Shown here: piece after piece, positions 34,564 through 63,760 of the stretch
Layout of the letters: each line of letters begins with the position of its first letter
Position numbering within the stretch: position 1 is the stretch's first letter
DNA from: Schwartzia succinivorans DSM 10502
GTDB lineage: Bacteria > Bacillota > Negativicutes > Selenomonadales > Selenomonadaceae
NCBI RefSeq assembly: GCF_900129225.1
Contig: NZ_FQUG01000007.1
Span: forward strand, 124,001-188,000
Direction of reading: 5' to 3'
DNA: 64,000 bases
Notes under the pieces: model-generated
What the model saw: the letters and a program-made list of their open reading frames with translations, nothing else
Told to the model about the DNA's origin: nothing
Databases searched by the model: none
Translations under genes and position numbers: made by a program

Positions 34564-35264
34564 GATGGGTTCACCGTCTTTTCCAAGTATCTGCGTCCAA
34601 AAACAAGTATTACAAGAATCATGCCCATTGTCGGAACCATGAAGGAATCAGCCCCAAATACGTTGAGACACACTACCGCAGAGAGCATTCCAATACATGC
34701 AGTATAGTGCTTCCTTTCGTGAAGCAGCTGCTCAAGAAAAATCACGACAAACATCGCGGTCATGACAAAATCAAGACCTCTTGTATCAAAGGTCAGCAAC
34801 GAACCCAAAAGTCCGCCGAGCGTTGCGCCGCCCACCCAATATAATTGATTAAGAAGTGTCACCCAGAACATAAACCATCCACGGTCTATCCCCTCAGGAA
34901 TCCTGGCTGTAAAATTTATTGAAAAGGATTCATCACAGAGTCCGTATATCAAATACCAGCGTTTCCAGCCAAGTCCCTTGAACCGGTCAAGCATAGCAAT
35001 TCCATAAAAAAGATGCCTTGCCTGTATCATTAACGCAAGAAGAAACACCTCTGCCGGCGCAAAGGGAGACAACAGCATAGACACCGCAACAAATTCCAAA
35101 GAACCTCCGAATATCACCGCCGACATGATCATGGGATACCAAAAAGAAAATCCCGATACATTCATGTACACTCCGTAGGCCATACCAAGAAAAAGAAACC
35201 CCGCAAGAATCGGAATCGTATTTGGAAGAGCTGCCCTGAAGGCATTTATCCGTGTATTATTCAT
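34560..35264 (-). CDS. azlC: AzlC-family branched-chain amino acid exporter subunit
   Basis: 234 residues with about six to seven helices and the AzlC patterns FLFLGMAYGVYM, GGSLEFVAVSML and ARHLFYGIAM. Its ATG overlaps the rep stop codon by four bases, so a metabolite exporter is translationally coupled to the replication initiator. That coupling is unusual and may be accidental cargo. Confidence 0.9.
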   Translation of the reverse strand: MNNTRINAFRAALPNTIPILAGFLFLGMAYGVYMNVSGFSFWYPMIMSAVIFGGSLEFVAVSMLLSPFAPAEVFLLALMIQARHLFYGIAMLDRFKGLGWKRWYLIYGLCDESFSINFTARIPEGIDRGWFMFWVTLLNQLYWVGGATLGGLLGSLLTFDTRGLDFVMTAMFVVIFLEQLLHERKHYTACIGMLSAVVCLNVFGADSFMVPTMGMILVILVFGRRYLEKTVNPS

Positions 35265-36271
35265 TCAGCAGCTGCGCTCTTTTCTGACTTACTTCCGAAA
35301 AGGTTTTCCATATGCGGAGAATGATAGCCTTGTCTCTCAAGCTCTCTTCTCAGGCTTCCGTCTGAAGGAACATGCTGAACCGGCTCCGGACGCATAATCG
35401 GCTTTTCCTCTGTTCTTTTTTTCTGAGATGGATATTTTACGTAGGTATAATCCTTCTCAGATGCTTCATACGTCTTTGTATCGTCCGTCATATCCTCAGG
35501 AACATTAGAAATATCCATCCGAATGAGGAATGCAACTATACGCCGTCCCTCCTTGATGGATTCATAGCTCATTATATAGTTTGTCTTTTTGTTGATTTCA
35601 CGGATTGGTCCGTCAAGGACACGGCTTCTGAAATGAGCAATGCGGTCGTAGGCACCGTCAGGAACATCAAGCACATTTCTAAGCTCTTCTACGGTAAACT
35701 TTCGCTCGATTATTCCCGTACCGTTCTTACGGGCAAAGCCCCTGTACTGAATCAAAAGCTCAACAAGACGCCATGCGTAGGAAGAGCTGAGGGGAAAAAT
35801 CTGCCTCATGGTAATACGCGTGTAGCCATAGTCCTTATCCAAAAGCTGCAGGAGATACGGCTTCATATCATCACCGAACTTCATTATGAGGCCTTCATCT
35901 CCAATATAGCGGAACGACTGGAAAATAACCGACTCGCCGCCCTTATCCTTTGGATTTTTAGGATTTTGAGGAGGAAGCTTTACGGTATGGGAAAGCATTT
36001 TCTTCGCAATGGACGGGACAACGTTAAGATACTTATCATTGCCCAGCGCCGCTGCAAGAGCAGCAGGTTTAATTTTAATCTGCTTGAATTCAGTCTCATT
36101 CCATGGGTCCACAGCCTGAAGCGCCAGCGCAAAAAGACGCAGCTGCAGAGTATCCATTCCTTTTCTGACATTAATCAGCGGATTTGCCTGATATATACTG
36201 TCACGGAAAGGAGCAAGCTCGAAGCTGCCGCATTCTTCATATGTCTCTTTTTCATCTTCCTTGCGTTCCAT
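35261..36271 (-). CDS. repB: Rep_3-family plasmid replication initiator
   Basis: 336 residues. Two winged-helix domains typical of Rep_3 (RepB/RepE) proteins: the N-terminal NPLINVRKGMDTLQLRLFALAL and the middle RQIFPLSSSYAWRLVELLIQYRG. The C-terminal about 60 residues are a charged tail without structure. It binds iterons to open the origin and, as a dimer, to repress itself. The 14 iterons lie just upstream of its start, as expected. Start ATG 36271 follows a GAGGTGA site. Confidence 0.9.
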   Translation of the reverse strand: MERKEDEKETYEECGSFELAPFRDSIYQANPLINVRKGMDTLQLRLFALALQAVDPWNETEFKQIKIKPAALAAALGNDKYLNVVPSIAKKMLSHTVKLPPQNPKNPKDKGGESVIFQSFRYIGDEGLIMKFGDDMKPYLLQLLDKDYGYTRITMRQIFPLSSSYAWRLVELLIQYRGFARKNGTGIIERKFTVEELRNVLDVPDGAYDRIAHFRSRVLDGPIREINKKTNYIMSYESIKEGRRIVAFLIRMDISNVPEDMTDDTKTYEASEKDYTYVKYPSQKKRTEEKPIMRPEPVQHVPSDGSLRRELERQGYHSPHMENLFGSKSEKSAAAE

Positions 36272-36335
36272 AACTTATTTCACCTCAAGATGTAGTATAT
36301 CATTAAGTATCACATACATCAACGCCTGCGTGACA

Positions 36336-36896
36336 CTTACAATTTGGTGTCATTTAGGGCTTACTTTTTGTGACATTTACATTTTACACTTACAATTTGG
36401 TGTTATATAAAATGAAAAATTCGGCTTTGGGAAGAATCTTCACTTACAATTTGGTGTCATTTCGAGCTTACAATCCGGTGTCATATATGCCTTATTTAAT
36501 GAAAAAAATTTTTTAAATTTTTTCACTTACTTTTTGTGATATTACACGATACTGTGTTAGGTACAATGAAAAATACTACATGTACTGCTTACTTTTTGTG
36601 ACATTAATAAAATCCATCAAAGCTTTTCACTTGTTTTAACAGATCACTTTTTTCCCTTTGATAACATGTGGCCGCTTGTCTTCTCTGCTAAACTGTGATA
36701 TTTTACCTCCGGAAACTTTTTCAGACTTACTTTTTGTGACATATCCCTGTGAATACTGTATTTTCCGCCTGCTTACTTTTTGTGATATATACTTACCTTT
36801 TGGTATCATTTTCTTACATTTTGCGGATATATCGCTTACTTTTAGTGGTTTCTATTCTTACTTTTCGTGTACACATCGCTTACAATATGTAGACAT
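36336..36896 (+). repeat. origin of replication: iteron array (14 units)
   Basis: Fourteen direct repeats of a 17-18 bp unit of two flavours, CTTACTTTTTGTGACAT and CTTACAATTTGGTGTCAT, at 36336, 36360, 36389, 36443, 36467, 36526, 36588, 36726, 36772, 36791, 36813, 36834, 36857 and 36879. Spacing is irregular. AT-rich stretches (36490-36530, 36600-36660) could be the unwinding element. I saw no gene between 36272 and 37105. Confidence 0.88.
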
Positions 36897-48424: not shown

Positions 48425-48513
48425 TTTATGAACACACAAAAATCAGAACTTCGCACATAACATTTTGGAACAAATCGCATCCATGAAATATACATAAAAA
48501 GGAGTGATTGACT

Positions 48514-49503
48514 TTGGCAGAGAAAGATTTAATAAAAGCAGACAGCAGCAATGCCCTGCTCCTCGACCAGAATACAATCACTCCTGAGTATTTCATCAGT
48601 CACTATATGGAATTTGTTCCTATGTACATAGCAAGCGGTCAGCCATCACGGGACACGCTTAAAAGCTACGCCTCCTCCATCGACCAGTTTTTGGAATGGT
48701 GCCGCGACAATAAACGCAGTCCCCTCTCCTTCCACGACTATCAGATGAGATATTATTTCTCGTGGCTTTTCAAAAAAGGGTATAAAAAGAGCTCCATGGC
48801 CATAAAAATGGTTCATGTGCGCTGCTTTTTTATTGCAGCAGTCAAAATCGGACTCATAAAAGAAAACCCATGCCGGGACATCCACATCCCCAATGCACAG
48901 CCGGAGGAAAGAATCTTTTTCTTTACCCCTGACCAGCTCTATGAAATCTGCCGAGCGTTCGATGACGAAAAAAATGATTTCCTTCGATGCCGAGACACCA
49001 GCATACTGTGCCTTATGGGTGCCGAAGGACTTCGGAACGTGGAAATTCACCGCATGAACCGACAGGATATCAACTGGGAAAACGGCAGTATCTTCATCCG
49101 TGGCAAAGGACACAGCCGCTACATCTTCCCATGTGCTTCCACAATGAAATTTTTGTCGGATTACCTGGAATACTGCCCCACGCCCGACAAAACAGGCGAG
49201 CCATTCACCCCGATGTTCATCTGCGACTGCAACAGAAACGGCAGAAAACGCATATCAAGAAACGGCATTCGTTTCATCATGAACAAGGCACTGGAAAAAA
49301 CAGGCTATAAAAAGCCCGGCATCAGCTGCCATGTCTTTCGCCACAGTACAGGGACAAATCTCTATGCCGCAACCAAGGATTTGCGCCTGGTTCAGGAAAC
49401 CCTCGGCCACCGCGATCCCAAAACCACGGCCCGCTACGCCCATATACAGGAACGCATGGCCAAACGCGTCACTGAAAAGATTTTCCCGCACCCGCTCAAA
49501 TAA
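48514..49503 (+). CDS. XerC/D-like tyrosine recombinase
   Basis: 329 residues from TTG 48514 (GGAGTG upstream at good spacing). Core-binding N-terminal domain, then the catalytic set R in AEGLRNVEI, HxxR in HVFRHS, His in LGHRD and nucleophile Tyr in TARYAHI. It could resolve replicon dimers or invert DNA at the palindromes just upstream. It is not XerC or XerD itself by obvious sequence, and lacks phage context. Confidence 0.9.
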   Translation: MAEKDLIKADSSNALLLDQNTITPEYFISHYMEFVPMYIASGQPSRDTLKSYASSIDQFLEWCRDNKRSPLSFHDYQMRYYFSWLFKKGYKKSSMAIKMVHVRCFFIAAVKIGLIKENPCRDIHIPNAQPEERIFFFTPDQLYEICRAFDDEKNDFLRCRDTSILCLMGAEGLRNVEIHRMNRQDINWENGSIFIRGKGHSRYIFPCASTMKFLSDYLEYCPTPDKTGEPFTPMFICDCNRNGRKRISRNGIRFIMNKALEKTGYKKPGISCHVFRHSTGTNLYAATKDLRLVQETLGHRDPKTTARYAHIQERMAKRVTEKIFPHPLK

Positions 49504-51114: not shown

Positions 51115-51564
51115 TTACCAGCCATACAAAATAAAGAGCGAATATCGCCTCTCCAAAATACGAAGAAGACGCAGGCGTTCACGTATCCATTTGATATTTT
51201 CCTCACATTCCCGGCTCTTTTTCTTATATTGCAGGACAGCCTTTTCCTCCTGCAGGTACGCATCCCCCCAAGCAATTAGTACCCCTATGCTCATGCGATT
51301 GACAACATACGGGGAAAGTCTATAGAATTTATTTTGCGTCTCCGGACGATTGAACAGAGGCTTTCCATACTGGAACGCCTCTGTTGGTATCTCCCTGCCA
51401 AAAAATATATGCGGCACACGGCAAAGATACCACCCAAACGAATTTTCCTCGTCCACCTTAATCAAATTCCCCAATACATACGCGTCCAGTTCCTTCGGCG
51501 TCAAATTTTCCACTTCTCGTGCAAACTCAACCGATATCGGCGTCAATCTATACCAATGACCCAT
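51115..51564 (-). CDS. unknown protein, paralogue 3 of the cassette
   Basis: 149 residues. N-terminal TPKELDAYVLGNL..KVDEEN matches the TCKELVEVDEKGHYW region of the protein at 52169. The middle PLFNRPETQNKF matches PLFSQPGTQCHF (51579) and PFFSKEETQLRF (52169). A C-terminal basic helix follows. GGGAGG lies upstream of ATG. Function unknown. Confidence 0.62.
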   Translation of the reverse strand: MGHWYRLTPISVEFAREVENLTPKELDAYVLGNLIKVDEENSFGWYLCRVPHIFFGREIPTEAFQYGKPLFNRPETQNKFYRLSPYVVNRMSIGVLIAWGDAYLQEEKAVLQYKKKSRECEENIKWIRERLRLLRILERRYSLFILYGW

Positions 51565-51578
51565 TATTCATACCTCCC

Positions 51579-52154
51579 TCAACCATAAACATGAACCAAA
51601 ATATCCCTCGTCCAATCCATCCGCTTGCAAATCCGCAGAAGATCAAACACCTGAAACTGTGACAACTGTAAAAAATAAAGTGTTAAGCGCGGAAAATCAG
51701 GATCAGCAGCGAAATTCTCCCTCAAATCAAACTCCTTCGGCAGATGATAGGGCGCCTTTCTGAATCTTCGCTTCAGGTACGCCTCATCTATCGCTGCCTT
51801 ATACCTGTCAGCAACCTGCCCCTGCAGCGCTGACATCAGGTGGAGCAAATCATCTTCCGTAACCCGTCTCAAATACAGAGACTCAAAATGACACTGTGTC
51901 CCGGGCTGAGAGAATAATGGGCTCAGGGATGACTCCCACTCCTCCATCCCTTCCAAACGACCGCCCCGGAAAGCGAAAATCTCCTCAACCTCTCCAAGCC
52001 GGAAAAACGATATTTCCTCAAGCTCCGGTATCCACGCCTGCGGCAAAAATTTTTTAACATGACTACACAGAGCAGGCCACGGCAGACGCGTACATTGATC
52101 CGCTATTCCTTTTTTCATCTTGAAAAGATAATACTTCGGTTCACCAAAATACAT
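51579..52154 (-). CDS. unknown protein, paralogue 2 of the cassette
   Basis: 191 residues. Starts MYFGEPKYYLFKM, with the shared SPLFSQPGTQCHF box near residue 85 and a long helical region after it. It ends in SQFQVFDLLRICKRMDWTRD, similar in layout to the end of paralogue 1 (YVDLVRLMQTDWNKK). Both end in a region of about 20 residues with L-R-x-C/M and D-W, which may be a functional site. The three genes are 12-15 bp apart and form one operon. Confidence 0.62.
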   Translation of the reverse strand: MYFGEPKYYLFKMKKGIADQCTRLPWPALCSHVKKFLPQAWIPELEEISFFRLGEVEEIFAFRGGRLEGMEEWESSLSPLFSQPGTQCHFESLYLRRVTEDDLLHLMSALQGQVADRYKAAIDEAYLKRRFRKAPYHLPKEFDLRENFAADPDFPRLTLYFLQLSQFQVFDLLRICKRMDWTRDILVHVYG

Positions 52155-52168
52155 TGTTTTTCACTCCT

Positions 52169-52726
52169 TCATTCTCTGCAAAAGACAAGGGCTTTTTTAT
52201 TCCAATCCGTTTGCATAAGACGCACTAAATCGACATATTCATACTCCGGTCCGGAACTCCGCACAAGAGAATCCACCGACATATTCAGATTAAGGATACG
52301 TTCCCCTTTCCATTGCGCATAGCGCTTTTTCAAATGCGCCACGTACTCGTCGAAAGAAAATGCGCTGTACATTCGCTCCACCTCCTGCAGATAAAAATCC
52401 ATCGCAGCCTGAATCGCAGCAGGTCCTATCATACGCGGAGCTGCTGTACTAAAGCGTAGCTGCGTCTCTTCCTTTGAAAAAAACGGATGGCTGACGCACT
52501 CTACAGCGGACAGGAAAGCCTCCTGTGTTTCTGCATCTGCATAGGAAATCGCAGAAAAGGTATAAACCAACTCCCCCCAACGCGGAAAATAGAAAGCGCC
52601 ACACCGCGAATGGGATACCCAGTAATGCCCCTTTTCATCGACTTCTACCAGCTCCTTACAAGTCATCTTCGAAATACGAAGTGCCAGATGCAGTGGCATT
52701 TCAAGCAAATAAAAACGCCGATACAT
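52169..52726 (-). CDS. unknown protein, paralogue 1 of the cassette
   Basis: 185 residues. Starts MYRRFYLLEM, has HPFFSKEETQLRF (about 80-92), a helical middle (VERMYSAFSFDEYVAHLKKRYAQW) and a C-terminal LVRLMQTDWNKKALVF. Strong AGGAGG before ATG 52726. No membrane segment or signal, so cytoplasmic. First gene of the cassette. No family recognised. Confidence 0.62.
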   Translation of the reverse strand: MYRRFYLLEMPLHLALRISKMTCKELVEVDEKGHYWVSHSRCGAFYFPRWGELVYTFSAISYADAETQEAFLSAVECVSHPFFSKEETQLRFSTAAPRMIGPAAIQAAMDFYLQEVERMYSAFSFDEYVAHLKKRYAQWKGERILNLNMSVDSLVRSSGPEYEYVDLVRLMQTDWNKKALVFCRE

Positions 52727-53184: not shown

Positions 53185-53369
53185 AATATATCGCCTCCTC
53201 GTTTTGAGTTTTATTTTTTAAAACTATGCTATCTTTAGCTCCAGAATATAATCTCCGTGCTCGAGAGAACACGTTAACCAGCACTTTTTCGCATCCTATA
53301 TCATGGAAATTATCCAATAATAAACATCTTACAGCTTTTCTTATGCCACAAGTCTCCGATAGGCAGTTT

Positions 53370-53458
53370 TATAACGCCTTTGTTCCAGATTTGCCGCAGG
53401 CAAAACTTCCTCTGTCGGCGTTTTCCCAGAAGTGGGGGACATCTTTTGCCGAGTTATA
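53370..53458 (-). repeat. MITE-like element, copy B with internal deletion
   Basis: 89 bp with both ends (TATAACGCC and GAGTTATA) and the AAGTGGGGGAC arm, lacking the GC-rich middle hairpin. The rest of 53185-53718 holds no gene apart from the terminator noted next. Confidence 0.75.
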
Positions 53459-53718: not shown

Positions 53719-56700
53719 TTATAGACGCCCGGAAGCCAAGTCAGTTTCAAGCTTTTGATAGAATTCATTTATACCATCATATTCGTTACAATTAGAATCC
53801 TTTTCTTTAGGCATACAAACAGGACAAATTACCATCCAATGATACCCGGGATTTTTCTCTACATAATGGTTGAAAACATGTTTGACTAAATTATTTCCAC
53901 AATCGTAACAATGGGTTTTAACCCAAAAAGCATGACATGAATTGCACCAGAGATGATATTTCTTGTAACCCTTTTCTGTATATAAAACTTCGTACGAGAT
54001 ATCCCGAGATCCACAACACCAACACTGTTTCCATTCTCTTGCGTAATCCTCGCAAAGCAATTGAAAAAATGATTGTAAATTTTCTAGCGATTGATTAAGT
54101 TCGACATTATTATCGTGAGGGACCATATAAAACGATCCAATTCGACATTTATCTTTTTTACTTTTGGAAGGTTTCATATAGAATATATTCTCACACCGTT
54201 TATCATTATACGCATCGTAAGTGACATATTTACCCACACCGCCCGTTAATGTTCTGTCACTATGTACAATGAAAGCAGCAGAAATATTTATTCCGAAATT
54301 TTGTAAGCATTTGTAATATTTGTCAAAGCAAACTTCGGCCAGATCCTTTTTTATCCAGTGGTTATAACCCTTTCCATCCTTTTTTTCATTTGCCAAAAGG
54401 CCATCCATCATAGCATAATCTCTGTATTTAACATCAAGTATAAAATACAGCGGTGGCTCATTTTTGTGGTTTGTCTGCGAAAGCCTGAAAAGGAAATCCG
54501 GTCTTAATTCATATGAATATTTTTCACTCGTCTTGATTCCAATAGAATCTCTCATTGGTGTATCAAAAAAAATATCAAGCTGAAAATTTTGATTTTCCTT
54601 ATGATTTAGGTGAATACAGTTCGGCTTTGTTACAGCACCTTGCTGAAGAAAATCACTTAAAACCTTTGCTGGAGATAAATTTTTAGCATACCATCCCTGA
54701 GTTAAAACCAAATATTCCAAAATTTTTGCAAAAATCCAATATTCGTAAATCCTGTCTAATTTTTCATGTATGATATGTTCATCCGTTATTTCAAATGTGA
54801 AATCATACCTTTTATTCATGTCAGGCAAAAGCTTATAGGCCGCACTGTAATTCTTATCGTTGGAAAAAATTTGTGTCATCTTCCATGGTATGGACATATT
54901 CAATTCTGCCGGCAAATCAACAAATAGAACTGATTTCTGCAAAACTGCTAATTTCTGCTTTATTAAATCAATACGAGAATAACCATCCGTCTCATGCAAG
55001 TGAAATTCGTTTCTCATATTCTCCAAAGCTTTCCTTTGCGATTCAATGCTATTCATTATACCGTAATCCAGTAAAACCTTTTCAGCCTTCTTATCCTTAT
55101 TCTCTAAGTGTTTAGCATATGCATTTCCTATATCAACAACTTGCTTTTCCCATTCATCAGTTTTGATGCGACTGATTGGAACAGATCTGCCATCTACACA
55201 CAGTTCATATAATTTAAAAAATGTTATTTCAACATATATACATCCATTGCGTTTACTCTCGGTTTGTCTAAAATCACCTACTACATCTATTTTGATTCCG
55301 TCAGAAGTTCCCTCATCATCACGTTCCTCAATTAACGCACGATAAAATGCATATTGACTGCCAATATCCCACGTTTGAACAGTTATTTTTTCGAGGAACT
55401 TTTTTTCATCAGATATAATAACCCCCTTCCAACTGTGTTCAGAATCGTAACTTTTTTTTTGCCACTGAAGCTCGTATTCCCACTGAAGTTCTTCTGCTTT
55501 GCATAGGATATCCTTGGTTGATAATTTCGCCACTCGAAACGAAATTTTCCTACGAGCGCGGTTTATAGAATAACACTGACTTTTTTTGTAGGATTTTACA
55601 AATTCATCAAAATATTTCTCCTTCAGAGCATCCAATTCATCCTTAAGTTTAATCGTTTCTGTAACATACTGCTTCCACTTTGCCTCAATCTGATTATAAG
55701 TTACATTTCCTAATATTTGACACATCTTGTCCATAAGTGTCATTTCTTTTTCTTTGATGTTATAAGATACAAAAGGTAAACTTTTCTGATGATGCTCCAA
55801 AAAAGCGTACAATTGCTTGAGTGTCTGCTTTAGGAATCTGTGCTCATATATATCTCGACTCTTGTAAGCTTTACGAGTACGAAAATATTTCCTGGATGGC
55901 ATCTGTGCGTATTGACGCAAGATATCTTGATCAATCCGTTTTACATTCTGAAGGTTGCATTTGCATGGCTTCGCCATCAAAGAAAAATGTGGGGATTTTT
56001 CCATACGCTGAAACAATCTGCCTAATGTTGCCACATCATGCTCCATATCCTGTAATGTCTGCTCCCAAAGTTCAGTTATGGTCATTCTCTTAAAATTCAG
56101 TCCCACATTGTTTGAATTACTCTTACCTTCGCTAGACTGAAATTGCAGTAATCGACGATCAATACAAAGAATTTCGTTTATCATAAAGCGAAATTCCTCT
56201 TTGCTCAACGAAGAAGGCCATATCGTCAAATTCCATGAAAAAATAACTCTGAAATTACTGTCCTTGAGCAACAGTTTTGTATTCCCGGGTTGAACCGAAC
56301 CAAGGGAAGAACCTTCCAGAGTGTTTTTCAAGCGAAATACGCCATTCTTTTTTTCCAGTTTCGGCATATCGTAGTACAGCCCATTTTCATCGGGGCCATT
56401 AAATTCATGAAATTTTTCACTATCCTCACTGGTGGAATAGCCGAAATGGCAACCCTCAAGCAACTCATCACCATTCGGATAAAACTGAAATGCCGGCACC
56501 GCAAACAACCCAGGAGAAATATTTTCCCCCCAGCGATAGTGGGTTTTTGTTTCTAACAGTTCGCCTGGTTTATAAAACTCTTTATATCTTAGTGGCAACT
56601 TTTCATCATAGAATGACTTGTCTATCATTTTGACACTTGTTATATTTCCGGCTCTAACTTGTTCAGGTGGGAAATAAACCATACACATCCTGAGGCGCAT
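53719..56700 (-). CDS. McrC-like DUF2357 PD-(D/E)XK nuclease with zinc ribbons
   Basis: 993 residues. An N-terminal DUF2357-type region (about 1-350) precedes a helical middle and a PD-(D/E)XK nuclease domain with Pro-Asp in LRPDFLFRL (near 733) and Asp-x-Lys in FILDVKYRD (near 754-756). The C-terminal about 90 residues carry CxxC pairs (CWCCGSRD, CNSCHAFW, CYDCGN, CPVC), likely two zinc ribbons for nucleic acid. It is the nuclease partner of the AAA+ protein one base upstream, in the arrangement of McrBC type IV restriction. The target may be modified DNA or RNA. Confidence 0.85.
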   Translation of the reverse strand: MRLRMCMVYFPPEQVRAGNITSVKMIDKSFYDEKLPLRYKEFYKPGELLETKTHYRWGENISPGLFAVPAFQFYPNGDELLEGCHFGYSTSEDSEKFHEFNGPDENGLYYDMPKLEKKNGVFRLKNTLEGSSLGSVQPGNTKLLLKDSNFRVIFSWNLTIWPSSLSKEEFRFMINEILCIDRRLLQFQSSEGKSNSNNVGLNFKRMTITELWEQTLQDMEHDVATLGRLFQRMEKSPHFSLMAKPCKCNLQNVKRIDQDILRQYAQMPSRKYFRTRKAYKSRDIYEHRFLKQTLKQLYAFLEHHQKSLPFVSYNIKEKEMTLMDKMCQILGNVTYNQIEAKWKQYVTETIKLKDELDALKEKYFDEFVKSYKKSQCYSINRARRKISFRVAKLSTKDILCKAEELQWEYELQWQKKSYDSEHSWKGVIISDEKKFLEKITVQTWDIGSQYAFYRALIEERDDEGTSDGIKIDVVGDFRQTESKRNGCIYVEITFFKLYELCVDGRSVPISRIKTDEWEKQVVDIGNAYAKHLENKDKKAEKVLLDYGIMNSIESQRKALENMRNEFHLHETDGYSRIDLIKQKLAVLQKSVLFVDLPAELNMSIPWKMTQIFSNDKNYSAAYKLLPDMNKRYDFTFEITDEHIIHEKLDRIYEYWIFAKILEYLVLTQGWYAKNLSPAKVLSDFLQQGAVTKPNCIHLNHKENQNFQLDIFFDTPMRDSIGIKTSEKYSYELRPDFLFRLSQTNHKNEPPLYFILDVKYRDYAMMDGLLANEKKDGKGYNHWIKKDLAEVCFDKYYKCLQNFGINISAAFIVHSDRTLTGGVGKYVTYDAYNDKRCENIFYMKPSKSKKDKCRIGSFYMVPHDNNVELNQSLENLQSFFQLLCEDYAREWKQCWCCGSRDISYEVLYTEKGYKKYHLWCNSCHAFWVKTHCYDCGNNLVKHVFNHYVEKNPGYHWMVICPVCMPKEKDSNCNEYDGINEFYQKLETDLASGRL

Positions 56701-56701
56701 A

Positions 56702-58693
56702 TCATGCCCTCCAAAAATCTATTTCGTCTTCAGATAAAATGGACTCTAGAAGTTTCTCACTCATCGGGAAATTACTACACAACATCCTAATGGCTCCAAT
56801 ACGTCCATTCCAATTTGTATCTGTCCTACTGTCGTATCTCATTTTGGGCAGGACAAGTGATGCCACCAAGCAGTCCCAAACCGCCCTTCTACCCAAAGCC
56901 TTTTCCCATTCACGAATACTGCCAGATTCCATAAAAGCCGTTCCACGACGACTCAACCCACCATCTAATACCTTTTTTATTTTTTCCAATATATCTTCTG
57001 TCGACATGGAAAAATCGTCACTAATATCGGACTCGTAATTCATCAATGTTTGGTATATCAGTGGCAAGCCAGTGTCAACGTCACTATCATCAATCCTTGG
57101 CTGATTTTCTAATCGTATCACATAAGCTCTATCAAGTACTTTAGGGCTAAGATCAAGTGTCGTTTCATCTTGATTCAACGTACCAAAAAACTTTATATTG
57201 CCAGGAATTGTTAATGTTTCCGGGTAACGACTAAACATCATGGCTTGGCGGCATAGCTCCAGATAATATTTTCGTTCACTGACGGTGCTTTCCTTGAATC
57301 TATCCTTATCGCATATGACTGTACGTTGATCATTCTCGTCCCAAAATACGTTCATCTTTAATTCCCTTACGATATCAGAACGCAATGTGCTACTATAGAG
57401 TCTAAGCATTCTTTTTTCCGGATTCCGTTCCTGAAGAATACTTAGGAATTCAGCAAAATAATGCTCCACATGCGCTAAATTCATTTCATCCAAACAAATG
57501 AAATATAATTTGTCAGGATGATGCTGCGCCGCCTGACAAAATTCCAACAGCTTATCTAAAAACTGCGTAGCATAATAGGTTTTATCCATAGGATTATAAT
57601 ATCCAATCAGATCTCCTTTATCTGCCCAATTTGACTGAACAGGAATAATGGCAGCATCGGCGAATCCAAAGGATTTTGCAAGATAACGTACCAAACTTGT
57701 TTTTCCCGTTCCAGGTCTTCCCACCAAAAGCAACAATTTCCCAGTTTCAAGCCCAAGGTAAATATCACGCAGGATATCCACGGAATAATCCAATTGGTAT
57801 TCATTATGTAACCTACTTTGAAGATAGCTTATGGCTTCTTGAAAATTATTCATTTTATATCCATTTTCATGGTATTCAGCATCTTCCGATATTGATTGAA
57901 ATAATGTATCAATCTGAACATCAAATGCTTTAAGAAAGGCCAGCTTATCTTGCTGTTTTTCTATTTCCAGTTGCACTTCAACCAATTGTCCCTTCGCTTT
58001 AAGAATATTTTCATCTATTATTCTTGCTTCATCTTCAAAATCATTTTTTCTTTTTTTCAACTTTATGATTTCGGTATTTTTTTCTTCAATCTCTTTTTCC
58101 AACATTTCCAAGTTAGGACATTTTTCGAGATACTTTGACCATTTTTTTTTAGCGATACACTTGCAGATATATTCACCTATTTCGTCATTTTCATCATCAC
58201 TTACAGATCTAGAATCAAAATTTTTTATTGGCAAAAAGTAGTCAAAATTTTTAATTCTTTGTAAAATTCCATAAGGACTATATGATCGAAGTTGTAATCC
58301 CTTTAAAGGCTTGATTTTCTCACAAAATAATAATTCGGTGGGATTATCCATTTTTCGTGCTTTTACTGTAAAAATAACCTCCTGTCCATCAATAAAGTTA
58401 TTGTGTGCTATAAACTCCTTTAGAATACTAACCTTTAGAGGAATATCTAAATATGGATTCATTACTTCACGAGAAAAAATTGTTTTTATTTCTTTTATAA
58501 CAGGAAGCGTTTCTTCATCATTTAATTCAATTTTACCCCTAAAAATATTCCATTTCCGATCTTCACCATCGATATCTGCTTTCCATATTTCCTCATTGCA
58601 TAATTTAACATCATCCATAAATATTTTAATCCATTCTTCAGGAGATGAACTATTATGATATTTCTCTTTTGAAATACTCCAATCAATTGCCAT
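56702..58693 (-). CDS. McrB-like AAA+ ATPase/GTPase with coiled coil
   Basis: 663 residues. N-terminal specificity region (about 1-190) of unknown fold, a coiled coil (about 195-275, EKEIEEKNTEIIKLKKRKNDFEDE), then the AAA+ domain with Walker A GRPGTGKT (about 324-331) and Walker B YFICLDEMN (about 397-405), and RDxT-type sensor strands later. The LDEMN box is characteristic of the McrB GTPase branch. It translocates for, or activates, the nuclease. The coiled coil between recognition and motor recalls coiled-coil nuclease tandem (CoCoNuT) systems. Strong AGGAGCG before ATG 58693. Confidence 0.85.
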   Translation of the reverse strand: MAIDWSISKEKYHNSSSPEEWIKIFMDDVKLCNEEIWKADIDGEDRKWNIFRGKIELNDEETLPVIKEIKTIFSREVMNPYLDIPLKVSILKEFIAHNNFIDGQEVIFTVKARKMDNPTELLFCEKIKPLKGLQLRSYSPYGILQRIKNFDYFLPIKNFDSRSVSDDENDEIGEYICKCIAKKKWSKYLEKCPNLEMLEKEIEEKNTEIIKLKKRKNDFEDEARIIDENILKAKGQLVEVQLEIEKQQDKLAFLKAFDVQIDTLFQSISEDAEYHENGYKMNNFQEAISYLQSRLHNEYQLDYSVDILRDIYLGLETGKLLLLVGRPGTGKTSLVRYLAKSFGFADAAIIPVQSNWADKGDLIGYYNPMDKTYYATQFLDKLLEFCQAAQHHPDKLYFICLDEMNLAHVEHYFAEFLSILQERNPEKRMLRLYSSTLRSDIVRELKMNVFWDENDQRTVICDKDRFKESTVSERKYYLELCRQAMMFSRYPETLTIPGNIKFFGTLNQDETTLDLSPKVLDRAYVIRLENQPRIDDSDVDTGLPLIYQTLMNYESDISDDFSMSTEDILEKIKKVLDGGLSRRGTAFMESGSIREWEKALGRRAVWDCLVASLVLPKMRYDSRTDTNWNGRIGAIRMLCSNFPMSEKLLESILSEDEIDFWRA

Positions 58694-58811
58694 TTGTAAT
58701 CGCTCCTGTTATTTCAAATATGCGTGTAAAAATTCTATAAGAGATTATCTTCTTTACCTTCTCACCTATCAAGAACTTCCTGTATAAATTCCGTCTCTCC
58801 TACACATAGTT

Positions 58812-58975
58812 TATAACGCCTTCGTTCCAGTTTTGCCGTAGGCAAAACTTCCTCTATCAGCGTTTTCCCGGATGGGACTAGCTGCGCGTCGCGCGAGGCG
58901 GGAGATATGCTCGCCGCCTGTTATTTGCCCCAGCCCCCACTTACAGAAGTGGGGGACATCTTTTGCCGAGTTATA
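58812..58975 (-). repeat. 164-bp MITE-like element, copy C (complete)
   Basis: Reverse orientation of copy A, same 164-bp length, with the three hairpins intact. It separates the McrBC-like pair from the cas genes and fills most of the 302-bp gap 58694-58995; I see no CRISPR repeats there. Confidence 0.8.
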
Positions 58976-58995
58976 CCTTTAGGCAAAGAACCGTT

Positions 58996-59805
58996 TTAAT
59001 GCTTAAATTCTACCCTCGTCGCGCCGAATCCCTGCCCTGTCAGGCGGCCTACTCCTGAAAATTCCGCGAACTGCGCAAGGAGGAGAAATATCTGCTGCAT
59101 TTCTACCGGAAGTACATTCAATTCGTAAGTAAATATCCCTTGAAAAGCAAGCATTCCCCTATCAGGAGAAAAGTACACCTTTCTGCTTTCTCCCTTCCAA
59201 TCCAAAAGCCGAACTGCTTTTGCCGCATCCTTGACGGACGCACGGTCAATCGCCGCAGGCATTCCTGCCTGATTCCATTTATCCGCCAGCGAAGCAAAAA
59301 CAAATTCCGCCAAAGGAAAAGGATAATCTCTGTCGAAATTTCTAAAGGACACAGGAGAAATAAACCTAAAGGTTACTGAGTCAACACGATTCTGAGACAA
59401 TGCCCATGCAATCATATCGGCCTCAGAAGCTACTCCTGATTCCTTCGAGCCATCGGCAATAACATCCTCCACAATCATTCGCGCGTGTCCTACCGCAATC
59501 TTCGTTCCTTTAGGAACCTCAAGAAAGGCCCGCAGAAGAGCTTCATGAGTAGCCGTTACCCGCCACCAAAAAAGCTCTCCCTTTTTGACCGTAAAATTAC
59601 GCCCCTTTTCCTTCCGTTCCGTAACACGCTTTAAAAGTGACACGGTAAAAGGTTTGCTGGTCATGGTATCATGTACGGCAGCCGACAGCTCCTCCGAGCA
59701 TTGCTCCAGGAGAGAAAACGCTGCGCCATGCATCAACCTTCCGTGAAAGGCAATCAGACCGGCCGCGTTTTCTGCCCGCAGGAGATATACTACCGCGCCT
59801 ATCAT
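58996..59805 (-). CDS. cas6: Cas6-family CRISPR RNA endonuclease
   Basis: 269 residues with two RAMP-type ferredoxin folds and the C-terminal glycine-rich loop FSGVGRLTGQGFGATRV (about 247-263). An N-terminal His in LIAFHGRLMHG is a candidate active-site residue. It cuts pre-crRNA into repeat-tagged guides. It is the last gene of the operon, overlapping the preceding RAMP gene by four bases. No CRISPR array is in the window, so the array must lie elsewhere. Confidence 0.87.
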   Translation of the reverse strand: MIGAVVYLLRAENAAGLIAFHGRLMHGAAFSLLEQCSEELSAAVHDTMTSKPFTVSLLKRVTERKEKGRNFTVKKGELFWWRVTATHEALLRAFLEVPKGTKIAVGHARMIVEDVIADGSKESGVASEADMIAWALSQNRVDSVTFRFISPVSFRNFDRDYPFPLAEFVFASLADKWNQAGMPAAIDRASVKDAAKAVRLLDWKGESRKVYFSPDRGMLAFQGIFTYELNVLPVEMQQIFLLLAQFAEFSGVGRLTGQGFGATRVEFKH

Positions 59806-61778
59806 CGATTTCTCTTCCCTGCTCTGCTGAGTACGGTCTTCATATCAGGCAGAATATTTCTATTTTTGAACTTACCATTTGGAGAAACTGAAATCCTACC
59901 ATTCCTTCTAAGCTTATAAGTACTCTTAAGAAGCTCTGTTGCCGCTTTCATGTCTGGCAGCTCTGTAGCAGCATAATCCATCGCCATGCGAAGTCCGTTA
60001 AGTACCGCTTCGTAGGAAGCCGTGAGTTTTTTCTCCCTCACATACGATTCAAAGCTCTTGATAAAAGGACCCATATCCTTTTCCGCGCTTGAATTAACCC
60101 AGCCATGTTCATCAAACAGCACCTTGGCCACCTTTTTATCTTCAAGGTAGAGTTTTGTTGCATCAACATGGATGCTTCCAAGTCCAATGGATTTCCCCTG
60201 TCCAAGCTTGAAGGCTATGTCCTCCTTATTTTTATCCGATGCCAAGGAAAATACCCTTAAAAGAGCACCGAGCTCTACATCACTGAGATTGTGGAAATGG
60301 ATCTTCCCAGTAAAACGATTGCCTGCAAGAATAGGACGTATTTTATGAAGGACCTTACCACCCAACTTTTGCTCATACTCATTTGCCTTCCAACTCGTAC
60401 CGTCACCATTCTTTGTATGCCAGTAGAACTTATACCCACGAATAGTCGCGCCCTCCGAATCCCAATGCATGAGCTGTTTGTCATCATCCTGTTTCAGATA
60501 TAGCTGAAAAGATGTCGGATTCGGCTGCACTAAAACATGCGAATAATCCGCCTCATCCGACTTCTTCACATCTCCTTCAGGAACCGCATCATCAAAATGA
60601 ACACGAGATGCCCAGCTTGCTTTTTCGTCGCTGAGTCCAAACACTGCGTCGGCAAAATCAATTGTGCTTTCCTGCAGCTGCCGGGGAACAGCATCAGTGA
60701 CAGAAGAGTCATATGCAATACGGAATGACTGCCCATGTCCAAATGCCGATACCCGTCCGTTATTCTCGATATAAAAACACGGAACGATTGATTCAATCCC
60801 TTCAACATCAAGCACTTTTCTTGCATCCCGTTTGCGCTTTATATTAGTGTCAGCCTTTTTGTCACTCAACAAATTGACACCGCGTCTATTTTTATCACCT
60901 TTATATTCTTCAATAACTTCATCAGGTACCTGTATACGGTGTGCTTCTGACTTGTCGATTTCACTGAAAATAAAATATTTAAAATACTGTTTTCCCAGAG
61001 CAGAACGCTCATCCGCGGGAGTTTCCTCAATAAAAGCATCAATTTCTTCTTTTGTTTTCAAGCCCTCCTCATCAAGAACTGCCGTTACACAGATTGCCTT
61101 ATCATTGTCCCACTCAACGTGAGATTTGCGGATAGTCGATGAATATTCATCCTGATAATCCTTTATCAGGATGGAATGAATTTTCCCCTCCCGCATCGGA
61201 TAAATAAAATAATCGCCACGCAGCTTCACCAGAAATCCAGGCTTTGCGTTTTTCCTTACGGAACCCTCAGAATCCGTTGATGTCATTTTCTCCTTATAAT
61301 GGTTGCACAGTCCAACATTACAAGGTGCATCATTAGCCATTAAACAACGGTAATATAGATGGCGCGGTGTGATATCTTCCTTTGGCCGCATAGCTCCACA
61401 TGTCAAAATCTTGAACACATTTTTTACCATTCCGCGAATGGAGCTTCCAGGGAGAATCGTATCATCTCCCACAGCAAAACTTTCCTCACCATTCGTTTCA
61501 TTTCCGCCTATAAAGAGAGGGGTCTTCGTTTCAAAATCCAGCTTAAGATACCCGCTGTTCTTTCCCTTATTGAGAATAAACTCCTTAAAGGCTGCCCGCT
61601 CCTCTTTATTTCCCGAGAAAATTTTCTTACGATAATCATCAAGTTCCGCAGGAAGAATACTGTTTGGAAGAGGGATAAAGTTATACGGGGCTGTAGCAGT
61701 TGCCTCAGGCTTTGCTTCTTCTATCTCCTTTCCATATTTATCCTCCCACAGTGCTCCTAAATCTTCAAGTCCAGCCAT
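59802..61778 (-). CDS. type III RAMP (Cas7-like) protein, TIGR03986-like
   Basis: 658 residues, unusually long for a single Cas7. The N-terminal RAMP has LKLDFETKTPLFIGG and ILPGSSIRGMVKNVF; the C-terminal half has NRFTGKIHFHNLSDVELGALL and the glycine loop GQGKSIGLGSI. The G-rich loops and ligand-helix pattern match the CRISPR RAMP family TIGR03986 seen in type III-D. It probably forms part of the effector backbone binding crRNA. Confidence 0.83.
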   Translation of the reverse strand: MAGLEDLGALWEDKYGKEIEEAKPEATATAPYNFIPLPNSILPAELDDYRKKIFSGNKEERAAFKEFILNKGKNSGYLKLDFETKTPLFIGGNETNGEESFAVGDDTILPGSSIRGMVKNVFKILTCGAMRPKEDITPRHLYYRCLMANDAPCNVGLCNHYKEKMTSTDSEGSVRKNAKPGFLVKLRGDYFIYPMREGKIHSILIKDYQDEYSSTIRKSHVEWDNDKAICVTAVLDEEGLKTKEEIDAFIEETPADERSALGKQYFKYFIFSEIDKSEAHRIQVPDEVIEEYKGDKNRRGVNLLSDKKADTNIKRKRDARKVLDVEGIESIVPCFYIENNGRVSAFGHGQSFRIAYDSSVTDAVPRQLQESTIDFADAVFGLSDEKASWASRVHFDDAVPEGDVKKSDEADYSHVLVQPNPTSFQLYLKQDDDKQLMHWDSEGATIRGYKFYWHTKNGDGTSWKANEYEQKLGGKVLHKIRPILAGNRFTGKIHFHNLSDVELGALLRVFSLASDKNKEDIAFKLGQGKSIGLGSIHVDATKLYLEDKKVAKVLFDEHGWVNSSAEKDMGPFIKSFESYVREKKLTASYEAVLNGLRMAMDYAATELPDMKAATELLKSTYKLRRNGRISVSPNGKFKNRNILPDMKTVLSRAGKRNR

Positions 61779-61779
61779 A

Positions 61780-62340
61780 TCATTTCACCTCCGCAGCAGA
61801 AATCTCTACAAATCTATAATCCGTATAGCCGGCAAGCCCTACCGGATTGTCTGCCGTTATATAATTACGTGTCGTAAGACCGTATTTTTCGCTTTTACCA
61901 TCTCCGGGTGCGGGAATATTCATGGAGAGCTTTCTCTGCTTATCCCTCAGAAGGATATATCCATCACCTTCACCTGCTTTTTCTCCCCAAAAACGTGAAA
62001 AGCTGTCTACATATACAGCTTCGTCTCCACTCCCGTCTTTACGGTAACGCCCCGAAAGACCGCTGCCTTTTTTACGAAGATGTACTTCCTCCTGCCCGTT
62101 AAAAACACGAAGCTCTTCGCAGGACTTATCCCCATCTGCGGCGGAGAGTTCAAGCCTTCCATTTACATATCTTCCCCACACGATTGCCGAACGTTTCCAC
62201 ATAACAGCAATCCCGTCTGCCTGCATCGTATCCTGAAGAAGCTTCTGCACCGACGCGAGATCCGATGAAACATTCAAAGGTTTCGTCTCTGATGTGCCAT
62301 GCACAAGACTAAGCTCCGACATAGTCAGTTCCATTCCCAT
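61780..62340 (-). CDS. Csx19-like CRISPR-associated protein (TIGR03984-like)
   Basis: 186 residues from ATG 62340, one base after the previous stop. Short beta-rich protein with AVMWKRSAIVWGRYVNGRLEL (about 46-66) and a C-terminal GYTDYRFVEI. Similar proteins (Csx19) sit beside TIGR03986 RAMPs in type III-D loci. Role unknown; it may be a subunit of the effector. Assignment is mainly from context and length. Confidence 0.65.
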   Translation of the reverse strand: MGMELTMSELSLVHGTSETKPLNVSSDLASVQKLLQDTMQADGIAVMWKRSAIVWGRYVNGRLELSAADGDKSCEELRVFNGQEEVHLRKKGSGLSGRYRKDGSGDEAVYVDSFSRFWGEKAGEGDGYILLRDKQRKLSMNIPAPGDGKSEKYGLTTRNYITADNPVGLAGYTDYRFVEISAAEVK

Positions 62341-62341
62341 T

Positions 62342-63760
62342 TCAGTGCGCCTCCTTATCCATAAATTGTTCTGCAAATGAATTTAATTTCTTCATATCCC
62401 CGGACATTACTTTACCTTTTTCACCCAACTCCCAAACATCATCTCTGTAACGGATGGTCGCATGAAGTCCTAAGAGTCTTCCTCGTCCGATTCCCTTTTC
62501 GCCGCCTATGGCAATGTTTCCACGCCACAGGTCACGGAGCAGGAAAAGTGCCAGACCTGCCTCAGCCTCCGAAGCCTTCCTTATCCCGAAACTCAGGTGC
62601 AAAGCCTTCTGTCCATTTTTCATCTGCCATACAGGTTTCGTCGCAAAAAGCGCAGCATCAATTGTCCCGCCCGTAAAACGGTCTATACGGTTTCTCTGTT
62701 GTACAGCGCCTGCAACAGAGCCGTCCTCACCTGAAAACTCTGCTTCTCGAACAAAGAACCGGCTTTTTACCTTTTTCTCATCTTCATTATCTGACTTGGC
62801 ACTTCCCATCAGATTTTCAAGCCCGACCGTTTCACAGGAAAACTGACGAAGAATATCCTCTGTTCTATGCCTCAAAACACCCTTCAAAGTCGTTCCCGGA
62901 ATAACGTACCTTCCATGACGCTTCAACATGACAGCAGCAATCGGTTTTCCGTCTTTTGTCTTCTCATCGGTATCATAATCCCGAATAATCAGGGAACCGC
63001 AAATCGCAAAATCCGCCTCTACTGTCAAAAGATTCTTTTCTTCTGCCGTAATATCCGAAGGCGCCGTCAGCTGTACCGAAGCCTGCTTCGCGTGGTGCTC
63101 TTCATTGCCAAGCCATGCAAGGACATCTTGCTTTTTCCCGAAATCAAACAGCCCGAGAGCATCCTCCGTCAAAACAGCGCATCCAAAACCTTTGCTCGTC
63201 AACGCTCCCAGTTGAATGCCTTTTTTCATACGGTCGCGAAGGTACTGCACCACCTGAATGATGTCATGACGTATAGGGCTCTTGATATCATTTTTGTCCT
63301 CAAGGTGCCAGCCGCGCAGTGTCATTTCCAGATAAAATTTACCTGTTGCACCGCTGTCTACAACTTCATAATCGAATTTAGCGCCCTGAATTGCCGATCC
63401 CGTGTACGAATCAATGCTGACACCGTCACGAAACGCAATCTTTCCGTTCTTCAACACGATGTCATCAATATTTACAGAACTTTGAATCCCATTCGAAGCG
63501 CCGCTTTTCTGATTGCCTTCCTTTATCTCTCCGAACAGATCAGCTTCATACTGAGGAATACTATCTCTTATCATGCTCCTGAGAACACCGGCTGCAGATG
63601 TTCCCGGTATTATAGGAGTTCCTTTTTTATTTTTTAATACATGTATGTCCTTATCATTCCCGGCATCACTTCCCTGTCCTGCACCGATCAAAAGAGAGGA
63701 TGCCAGGCAAAGATTTCCTTCAAGTATGATTTTACCTACTACAGCTTCCTGTCCCATCAT
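62342..63760 (-). CDS. type III RAMP protein with two fused Cas7-like domains
   Basis: 472 residues. Two RAMP repeats: the first has IIPGTSAAGVLRSMIRDSI, LGALTSKGFG; the second has YVIPGTTLKGVLRHRTEDIL and GGEKGIGRGRLLGL. Each carries the PGxxxxGxxR helix and a glycine-rich loop of Csm3/Cmr4-type backbone proteins. Asp residues in the thumb loops that cut target RNA could not be assigned with confidence. It overlaps the upstream partial gene by four bases (ATGA). Confidence 0.83.
   Translation of the reverse strand: MMGQEAVVGKIILEGNLCLASSLLIGAGQGSDAGNDKDIHVLKNKKGTPIIPGTSAAGVLRSMIRDSIPQYEADLFGEIKEGNQKSGASNGIQSSVNIDDIVLKNGKIAFRDGVSIDSYTGSAIQGAKFDYEVVDSGATGKFYLEMTLRGWHLEDKNDIKSPIRHDIIQVVQYLRDRMKKGIQLGALTSKGFGCAVLTEDALGLFDFGKKQDVLAWLGNEEHHAKQASVQLTAPSDITAEEKNLLTVEADFAICGSLIIRDYDTDEKTKDGKPIAAVMLKRHGRYVIPGTTLKGVLRHRTEDILRQFSCETVGLENLMGSAKSDNEDEKKVKSRFFVREAEFSGEDGSVAGAVQQRNRIDRFTGGTIDAALFATKPVWQMKNGQKALHLSFGIRKASEAEAGLALFLLRDLWRGNIAIGGEKGIGRGRLLGLHATIRYRDDVWELGEKGKVMSGDMKKLNSFAEQFMDKEAH

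What the first reader, a model, noticed from the sequence alone, without database searches (positions are those of the whole stretch)
53719..58693. McrBC-like pair with a coiled coil and zinc ribbons next to a type III CRISPR locus
The ATPase has an about 80-residue coiled coil before the McrB-type AAA+ domain; the nuclease has PD-(D/E)XK plus terminal CxxC pairs. The pattern is like coiled-coil nuclease tandems, which are proposed to act on RNA. Adjacency to an RNA-targeting type III operon makes cooperation plausible.
Basis: partly seen in the sequence, partly recalled or inferred. Interest (0 to 1): 0.7.

Follow-up and report, generated by a model that had tools for sequence, protein, structure and literature searches.

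The report
CoCoNuT-like McrBC pair beside CRISPR
Two adjacent genes encode a motor protein and a DNA/RNA-cutting enzyme that match a recently described family of bacterial antivirus systems (CoCoNuT-type McrBC); their position next to a type III CRISPR system is seen in this genome only, but a third gene that often accompanies the pair elsewhere also turns up inside some type III CRISPR loci.

Summary
The 663-aa AAA+ protein and the 993-aa nuclease, one base apart on the minus strand, form an NxD-type McrB/McrC pair. The ATPase has a 62-residue coiled coil and the motif GTLNQDET. The nuclease has an Ig-like sandwich, an interrupted DUF2357, an intact PD-DxK site and four terminal CxxC pairs. 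PADLOC knows relatives as candidate PDC-M26; the anatomy fits Type I CoCoNuTs, nearest I-A, although my tree lacked published CoCoNuT anchors. The neighbouring locus is a complete type III-D CRISPR system. Its adjacency does not recur. None of 80 relatives has type III genes within the fetched flanks, or RAMP genes on the same contig. In the class, ATPase-family and Cas10 presence are uncorrelated (7 shared genomes, 6.4 expected), and only this genome has them on one contig. I therefore read the pair as an independent defence module. A new lead emerged: a same-strand DUF3800-like gene (predicted RNase H-type nuclease with TPR-like repeats) accompanies the pair in 13 of 80 loci from at least six phyla. 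Relatives of it also lie in two type III-D loci. This genome carries one 57 kb from the pair; it groups with pair-linked copies.

The parts
56702..58693 (-). McrB-like NxD AAA+ protein (CnuB-like), 663 aa
   Evidence: ORF; PADLOC PDC-M26A E 2.4e-65; model aligns best with E. coli McrB 6ut6_D, Z 15.2 over 182 residues
57926..58111 (-). coiled coil, residues 195-256
   Evidence: COILS-type score; single helix in the AlphaFold2 model; conserved position in 74 of 75 relatives
57698..57721 (-). Walker A GRPGTGKT, residues 325-332
   Evidence: G328, G330 and K331 invariant in 44 sequences
57479..57490 (-). Walker B DEMN, residues 402-405
   Evidence: invariant in 44 sequences
57206..57430 (-). about 75-residue helical insert between Walker B and NxD, residues 422-496
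   Evidence: helices 435-447, 463-468 and 471-489 in the model; insert of 91-94 residues in the proteobacterial relatives
57167..57175 (-). NxD GTPase motif (N507-Q-D509), followed by E
   Evidence: N507 and D509 invariant; present in all 80 relatives
53719..56700 (-). McrC-like nuclease (CnuC-like), 993 aa
   Evidence: ORF; Pfam PDDEXK_7 4e-4 and DUF2357 0.012, both below cut-off; best structural match McrC, Z 8.5
56212..56700 (-). N-terminal Ig-like beta-sandwich, residues 1-163
   Evidence: AlphaFold2 model; Ig/filamin folds among VIA matches; RhoGDI is the top Foldseek match but weak, E 0.098
54937..55848 (-). coiled-coil and beta-barrel (OB-like) insert in DUF2357, residues 285-588
   Evidence: helices 285-329, 335-375 and 515-588 with strands 384-507 between (low pLDDT in much of 370-560); weak match to an OB-fold mtSSB, probability 0.82, E 0.21
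54256..54873 (-). PD-(D/E)xK nuclease domain, residues 610-815; P734 D735, D756-x-K758
   Evidence: motif residues invariant in 43 homologues
53815..54024 (-). C-terminal zinc ribbons, CxxC at 893, 919, 931, 959
   Evidence: C896 and C919 invariant, other cysteines nearly so
58694..58995 (.). 302-bp gap between cas6 and the ATPase holding a dispersed repeat with a 9-bp GC hairpin and a weak promoter-like site
   Evidence: 57 repeat matches genome-wide; hairpin and promoter-like site, the latter not above chance
53368..53458 (.). second flanking copy of the dispersed repeat
58996..63760 (-). 3' part of the type III-D operon (cas6, csm3-like, csx19, cas7); it continues outside the window to cas10, two CARF-HEPN genes, cas1 and the array. 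Neighbour, not part of the pair
   Evidence: PADLOC models; array

Best explanation
The pair is a stand-alone two-gene NxD-type McrBC system of the Type I CoCoNuT kind (nearest I-A in anatomy). Inferred mechanism: the McrB-like AAA+ protein assembles into rings; the DUF2357 part of the McrC-like protein contacts the ring and stimulates nucleotide hydrolysis; coiled coils and OB-like domains bring in or recognise the invading nucleic acid; the PD-DxK site then cuts it. The intact PD-DxK site makes DNA cleavage the safest guess; recognition of RNA, or RNA-triggered action, is possible. It sits next to a type III-D CRISPR locus as one unit of a local defence cluster and does not need that locus. 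Shown here: motifs, domain order, conservation, relatives, lack of recurrence. Inferred: ring assembly, GTP hydrolysis, target and antiviral action.
For: PADLOC PDC-M26A E 2.4e-65; full-length PDC-M26A/B matches in the Enterobacter relative. NxD in all 80 relatives. Coiled coil at the same place in 74 of 75. PD-DxK and zinc cysteines conserved across 43 nucleases. Models match E. coli McrB (Z 15.2) and McrC (Z 8.5) best. Domain order agrees with the Type I-A CnuB/CnuC description in PMC11090510. Relatives sit among other defence genes such as Type I restriction, methylases, SNF2 helicases and NB-ARC-type ATPases, with no type III neighbours. Cas genes overlap or nearly abut while the pair stands 302 bp off, behind a repeat found 57 times in the genome.
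Against: The tree has no published CoCoNuT sequences as anchors, so the subtype is by anatomy only. The window's branch (29 mostly Bacillota rows) is separate from the branch with the E. coli/Enterobacter proteins. The N-terminal 190 residues have low pLDDT and no detectable similarity to cold-shock domains. The nuclease matches the PADLOC nuclease model only weakly, E 2.6e-4. No activity has been tested.
Confidence: 0.75

Rival explanations
1. The pair is a dedicated effector arm of the type III-D CRISPR system, for example triggered by its target recognition or cyclic oligoadenylate, and acts on RNA together with it.
For: Adjacent, same strand, 302 bp downstream of cas6. DUF3800-like genes related to those beside the pair also lie within or beside two type III-D loci.
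Against: No type III genes near any of 80 relatives. Cas10 and the ATPase family co-occur at chance level, p 0.46. No CARF domain was recognised in the pair, and the locus already has two CARF-HEPN effectors. The gap carries a dispersed repeat.
Confidence: 0.06
2. The full system is three genes: ATPase, nuclease and the DUF3800-like RNase H-type protein. In this genome the third gene has moved 57 kb away (G000:C17:118201-120291) and still works with the pair.
For: The third gene is beside the pair on the same strand in 13 of 80 loci. It is rare, 8 of 379 genomes in the class, and 4 of those 8 also carry the pair. This genome's copy groups with two pair-adjacent copies, support 96/100.
Against: 67 of 80 loci show no such gene in the flanks held, although several contigs are short. 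The copy here is solitary. The DUF3800 assignment is below Pfam's cut-off, E 0.04.
Confidence: 0.25
3. An NxD McrBC system outside the CoCoNuTs (the methyltransferase-associated or CoCoPALM groups of PMC11090510) that acts on DNA only.
For: Intact PD-DxK nuclease; subtype not anchored by published sequences; other NxD ATPases in the class lie outside this branch.
Against: Coiled coil before the ATPase and a coiled-coil/beta-barrel insert in the nuclease match the CoCoNuT description. FtsB-like and signal-peptidase partners were not specifically searched for. One relative (L134) does have a methylase gene next to it.
Confidence: 0.2

Closest known systems
Type I CoCoNuT, subtype I-A (CnuB + CnuC; PMC11090510)
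   Same: Two genes; NxD motif; coiled coil fused before the GTPase; helical insert between Walker B and NxD; Ig-like sandwich; coiled-coil and barrel insert in DUF2357; PD-DxK; zinc ribbons
   Different: Shorter coil (about 62 aa); cold-shock domain not detected in the ATPase's N-terminus; separate, mostly Bacillota branch in my tree; subtype not anchored with published sequences
PADLOC candidate system PDC-M26 (PDC-M26A/B)
   Same: ATPase matches PDC-M26A at E 2.4e-65; zinc-ribbon end of the nuclease matches PDC-M26B at 2.6e-4
   Different: Only partial profile coverage; the nuclease is much diverged, while the Enterobacter relative matches full length
E. coli McrBC (Type IV restriction)
   Same: McrB AAA+ fold (Z 15.2) and McrC fold (Z 8.5); DUF2357 plus PD-DxK arrangement
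   Different: NxD instead of NxxD motif; coiled coil and unknown N-terminus instead of a methylcytosine-binding domain; added sandwich, insert and zinc ribbons
TPR-DUF3800 accessory genes of Cas12a2 and VI-F loci (PMC10910872, PMC12669027)
   Same: N-terminal DESG motif and a long C-terminal part that looks TPR-like in the third gene found beside relatives of the pair
   Different: Here the gene accompanies McrBC-like pairs and type III-D loci; sequence match to DUF3800 is below cut-off and no structure was predicted

Membership tests
[quoted passage not shown]
   GTLNQDET at residues 504-511; NxD in all 80 relatives
[quoted passage not shown]
   residues 195-256, about 62 aa; short end of 'long'
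CoCoNuT | McrC partner in the adjacent gene | tested here: met
   1-nt gap; McrC is the best structural match
CoCoNuT | GTPase domain falls inside the CoCoNuT clade of the McrB tree | tested here: inconclusive
   tree made, but published CoCoNuT reference sequences could not be fetched as anchors
CoCoNuT Type I-A | helical insert between Walker B and NxD | tested here: met
   helices 435-489 in the model; about 75 residues
CoCoNuT Type I-A | cold-shock/OB domain at the N-terminus of CnuB | tested here: inconclusive
   low pLDDT; no Pfam hit; profile comparison with E. coli Csp proteins negative but weak
CoCoNuT Type I-A | CnuC with Ig-like sandwich, DUF2357 carrying a coiled-coil and OB insert, PD-DxK and zinc ribbon | tested here: met
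   domain order in the model; Ig-like fold and McrC matches; motif conservation. The OB nature of the barrel is weakly supported
CoCoNuT | acts on RNA | not testable with these tools
   a prediction in PMC11090510; no activity data were found for this group
Type III CRISPR effector | recurs beside type III loci | tested here: not met
   0 of 80 relatives within flanks; no RAMP on the same contig
Type III CRISPR effector | CARF or SAVED sensor domain | tested here: inconclusive
   no CARF or SAVED family among Pfam and PADLOC hits; fold search covers only some parts

The most novel reading that the evidence does not exclude
A DUF3800-like RNase H-type nuclease with TPR-like repeats is a shared third partner of CoCoNuT-type pairs and of some type III-D CRISPR loci, so that two unrelated RNA-linked defence systems draw on one exchangeable effector; in this genome the pair, the type III-D locus and the third gene all lie on one contig.
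Probability: 0.25. Interest if true: 0.65.

Novelty: new member of a known kind. Interest (0 to 1): 0.42.

Why it matters
CoCoNuTs were predicted in 2024 to act on RNA, and I found no experimental test of that in the papers searched. This pair is a compact case with an intact nuclease. The recurrent DUF3800-like neighbour, a family reported as accessory to RNA-triggered CRISPR systems, gives an outside argument for RNA involvement and a concrete third component to test. The case also shows that adjacency to a type III locus can mislead when it does not recur.

Tried and rejected
(1) Direct link to type III: rejected for lack of recurrence, as above. (2) Flanking direct repeats as ends of a mobile cassette: rejected, since the same repeat has 57 matches in the genome. 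(3) Cold-shock domain in the ATPase N-terminus: Pfam scans of fragments and profile comparison with E. coli CspA, CspB, CspE and CspF gave nothing. (4) Equating the E. coli S43 pair with the published Type I-A CnuC APL73566.1: it could not be verified. (5) Phage or viral carriage: the nuclease finds nothing in phage records and the ATPase nothing in viral contigs; the DUF3800-like protein finds nothing in plasmids or viral contigs. (7) Relatives of the downstream 185-aa ORF in viral contigs: none. (8) VIA and Foldseek against PDB did not identify the ATPase N-terminus; that part was barely covered.

Full report
Observation. The window holds two genes on the minus strand one base apart: a 663-aa AAA+ protein (56702-58693) and a 993-aa nuclease (53719-56700). 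The ATPase has Walker A GRPGTGKT, Walker B DEMN and GTLNQDET. The nuclease has an intact PD-DxK site and four C-terminal CxxC pairs. It beats all 200 shuffles and lies at the same place in 74 of 75 relatives. It is about 62 residues rather than 80.

Neighbourhood. The genes beyond the ATPase form a complete type III-D system: Cas6, a Csm3-like protein, Csx19, Cas7, Cas5/Csx10, a second Cas7, Cas10 with GGDD, two CARF-HEPN proteins (one with a Csx20-like end), Cas1 and a repeat array at the contig end. Cas genes in the window overlap or almost abut; the pair stands 302 bp away. That gap holds a repeat with 57 matches across the genome, so the repeats flanking the pair do not mark a cassette. 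A promoter-like site before the ATPase is no more than chance.

Identity. PADLOC's candidate system PDC-M26 fits the ATPase (E 2.4e-65) and, weakly, the nuclease (2.6e-4). An Enterobacter relative matches both PDC-M26 models over full length. The 2024 CoCoNuT paper (PMC11090510) divides McrB proteins by NxxD and NxD motifs; this one and all 80 relatives are NxD. Type I-A is described there as coiled coil plus a helical insert between Walker B and NxD, with a partner carrying an Ig-like sandwich, a coiled-coil and OB insert in DUF2357, PD-DxK and zinc ribbons. The two AlphaFold2 models show that domain order, with low confidence in the ATPase N-terminus and in much of nuclease residues 370-560. 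Closest solved structures are E. coli McrB (Z 15.2, 182 residues, 3.1 A) and McrC (Z 8.5, 250 residues, 9.6 A). RhoGDI tops the Foldseek list for the nuclease but only at E 0.098; the paper reports the same resemblance for Types I-B and I-C.

Relatives. A scan of genome contigs gave 303 relatives; the best 80 were kept. They span Bacillota, Pseudomonadota, Campylobacterota, Deferribacterota, Thermodesulfobacteriota, Cyanobacteriota and others. In the tree the window groups with eight mostly rumen Selenomonadaceae or Veillonellaceae sequences (SH-aLRT 99), inside a 29-row, mostly Bacillota branch (98) beside a branch with the E. coli and Enterobacter proteins.

Test of the type III link. tblastn with this locus's Cas proteins found none within the flanks of 80 relatives. 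RAMP genes occur in 13 of those 80 genomes, but contig lengths show they are never on the pair's contig. Fifty-one of 80 loci have at least 8 kb on both sides. In the class, the PDC-M26A family is in 36 of 380 genomes and Cas10 in 67 of 379; 7 genomes have both, about what chance gives (one-sided p 0.46), and only this genome has them on one contig. The PDC-M26A count includes more distant NxD ATPases. The adjacency therefore looks local.

A third gene. In 13 of 80 loci a same-strand gene for a protein of usually 635-725 aa with an N-terminal DESG motif lies beside the pair, in at least six phyla. Its N-terminus matches DUF3800 below Pfam's cut-off (E 0.04) and a PADLOC DUF3800 model at 0.006 over another stretch. 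D10, E11, S12, G13, H65, R143 and D206 are invariant in 11 sequences. DUF3800 is reported as an RNase H-fold nuclease found with TPR repeats beside Cas12a2 and in VI-F loci. In the class only 8 of 379 genomes have this protein; four of them carry the pair, and two have it at type III-D loci: between two CARF-HEPN genes in one, and just after a CARF-HEPN gene in the other. This genome has one at G000:C17:118201-120291, 57 kb from the pair and solitary. It groups with the copies beside the pair in two close relatives (96/100). The term DUF3800 does not occur in the main text of the CoCoNuT paper. This supports a loose, exchangeable partner and an RNA-related setting. It does not show that the pair and the type III-D locus work together.

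Mechanism. Most likely a self-contained NTP-driven restriction-type defence: ring ATPase, McrC-like activator-nuclease, nucleic-acid recognition through coiled-coil and OB-like parts. Ring assembly, GTP use, target and antiviral action are inferred. Confidence is 0.75 for an independent NxD McrBC/CoCoNuT-type module and 0.06 for dependence on the CRISPR locus.

Noticed in passing
13 of 80 loci, e.g. L071:14102-16279, L067:5387-7552, L072:14196-16232, L080:14486-16456: A same-strand DUF3800-like (DESG) gene beside relatives of the pair in at least six phyla; DUF3800 is not mentioned in the main text of the CoCoNuT paper.
   Followed up: yes
L180:8881-10986 and L178:10506-12725: The same DUF3800-like family inside one type III-D locus (between two CARF-HEPN genes) and beside a CARF-HEPN gene near another.
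   Followed up: partly
G000:C17:118201-120291 (L170:10207-12297), about 3.7 kb outside the window: This genome's own DUF3800-like gene, solitary, grouping with pair-linked copies.
   Followed up: partly
L182:8736-18414: A DUF3800-like gene followed by an Hsp70-like gene and further same-strand ORFs, possibly another defence operon.
   Followed up: no
window 35261-36847: Rep3-type plasmid initiator gene with iteron-like repeats (CTTACTTTTTGTGACAT) beside it, on a 199-kb contig that also has ordinary metabolic genes.
   Followed up: partly
window 53368-53458, 58810-58975 and many other places: Dispersed intergenic repeat with a 9-bp GC hairpin, 57 matches in the genome.
   Followed up: partly
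window 51115-52726: Three tandem same-strand ORFs of 149-191 aa with no Pfam hit, apparently related to each other by eye.
   Followed up: no
window 48508-49503: Tyrosine recombinase/phage integrase gene about 4 kb from the defence genes.
   Followed up: no
L119 from 15041: CRISPR-like array (a 20-mer 35 times) near a relative of the pair; no RAMP gene was found in that genome.
   Followed up: no
G000:C9:166129-166683: Second, weaker Cas10 match in this genome (E 8.5e-11).
   Followed up: no
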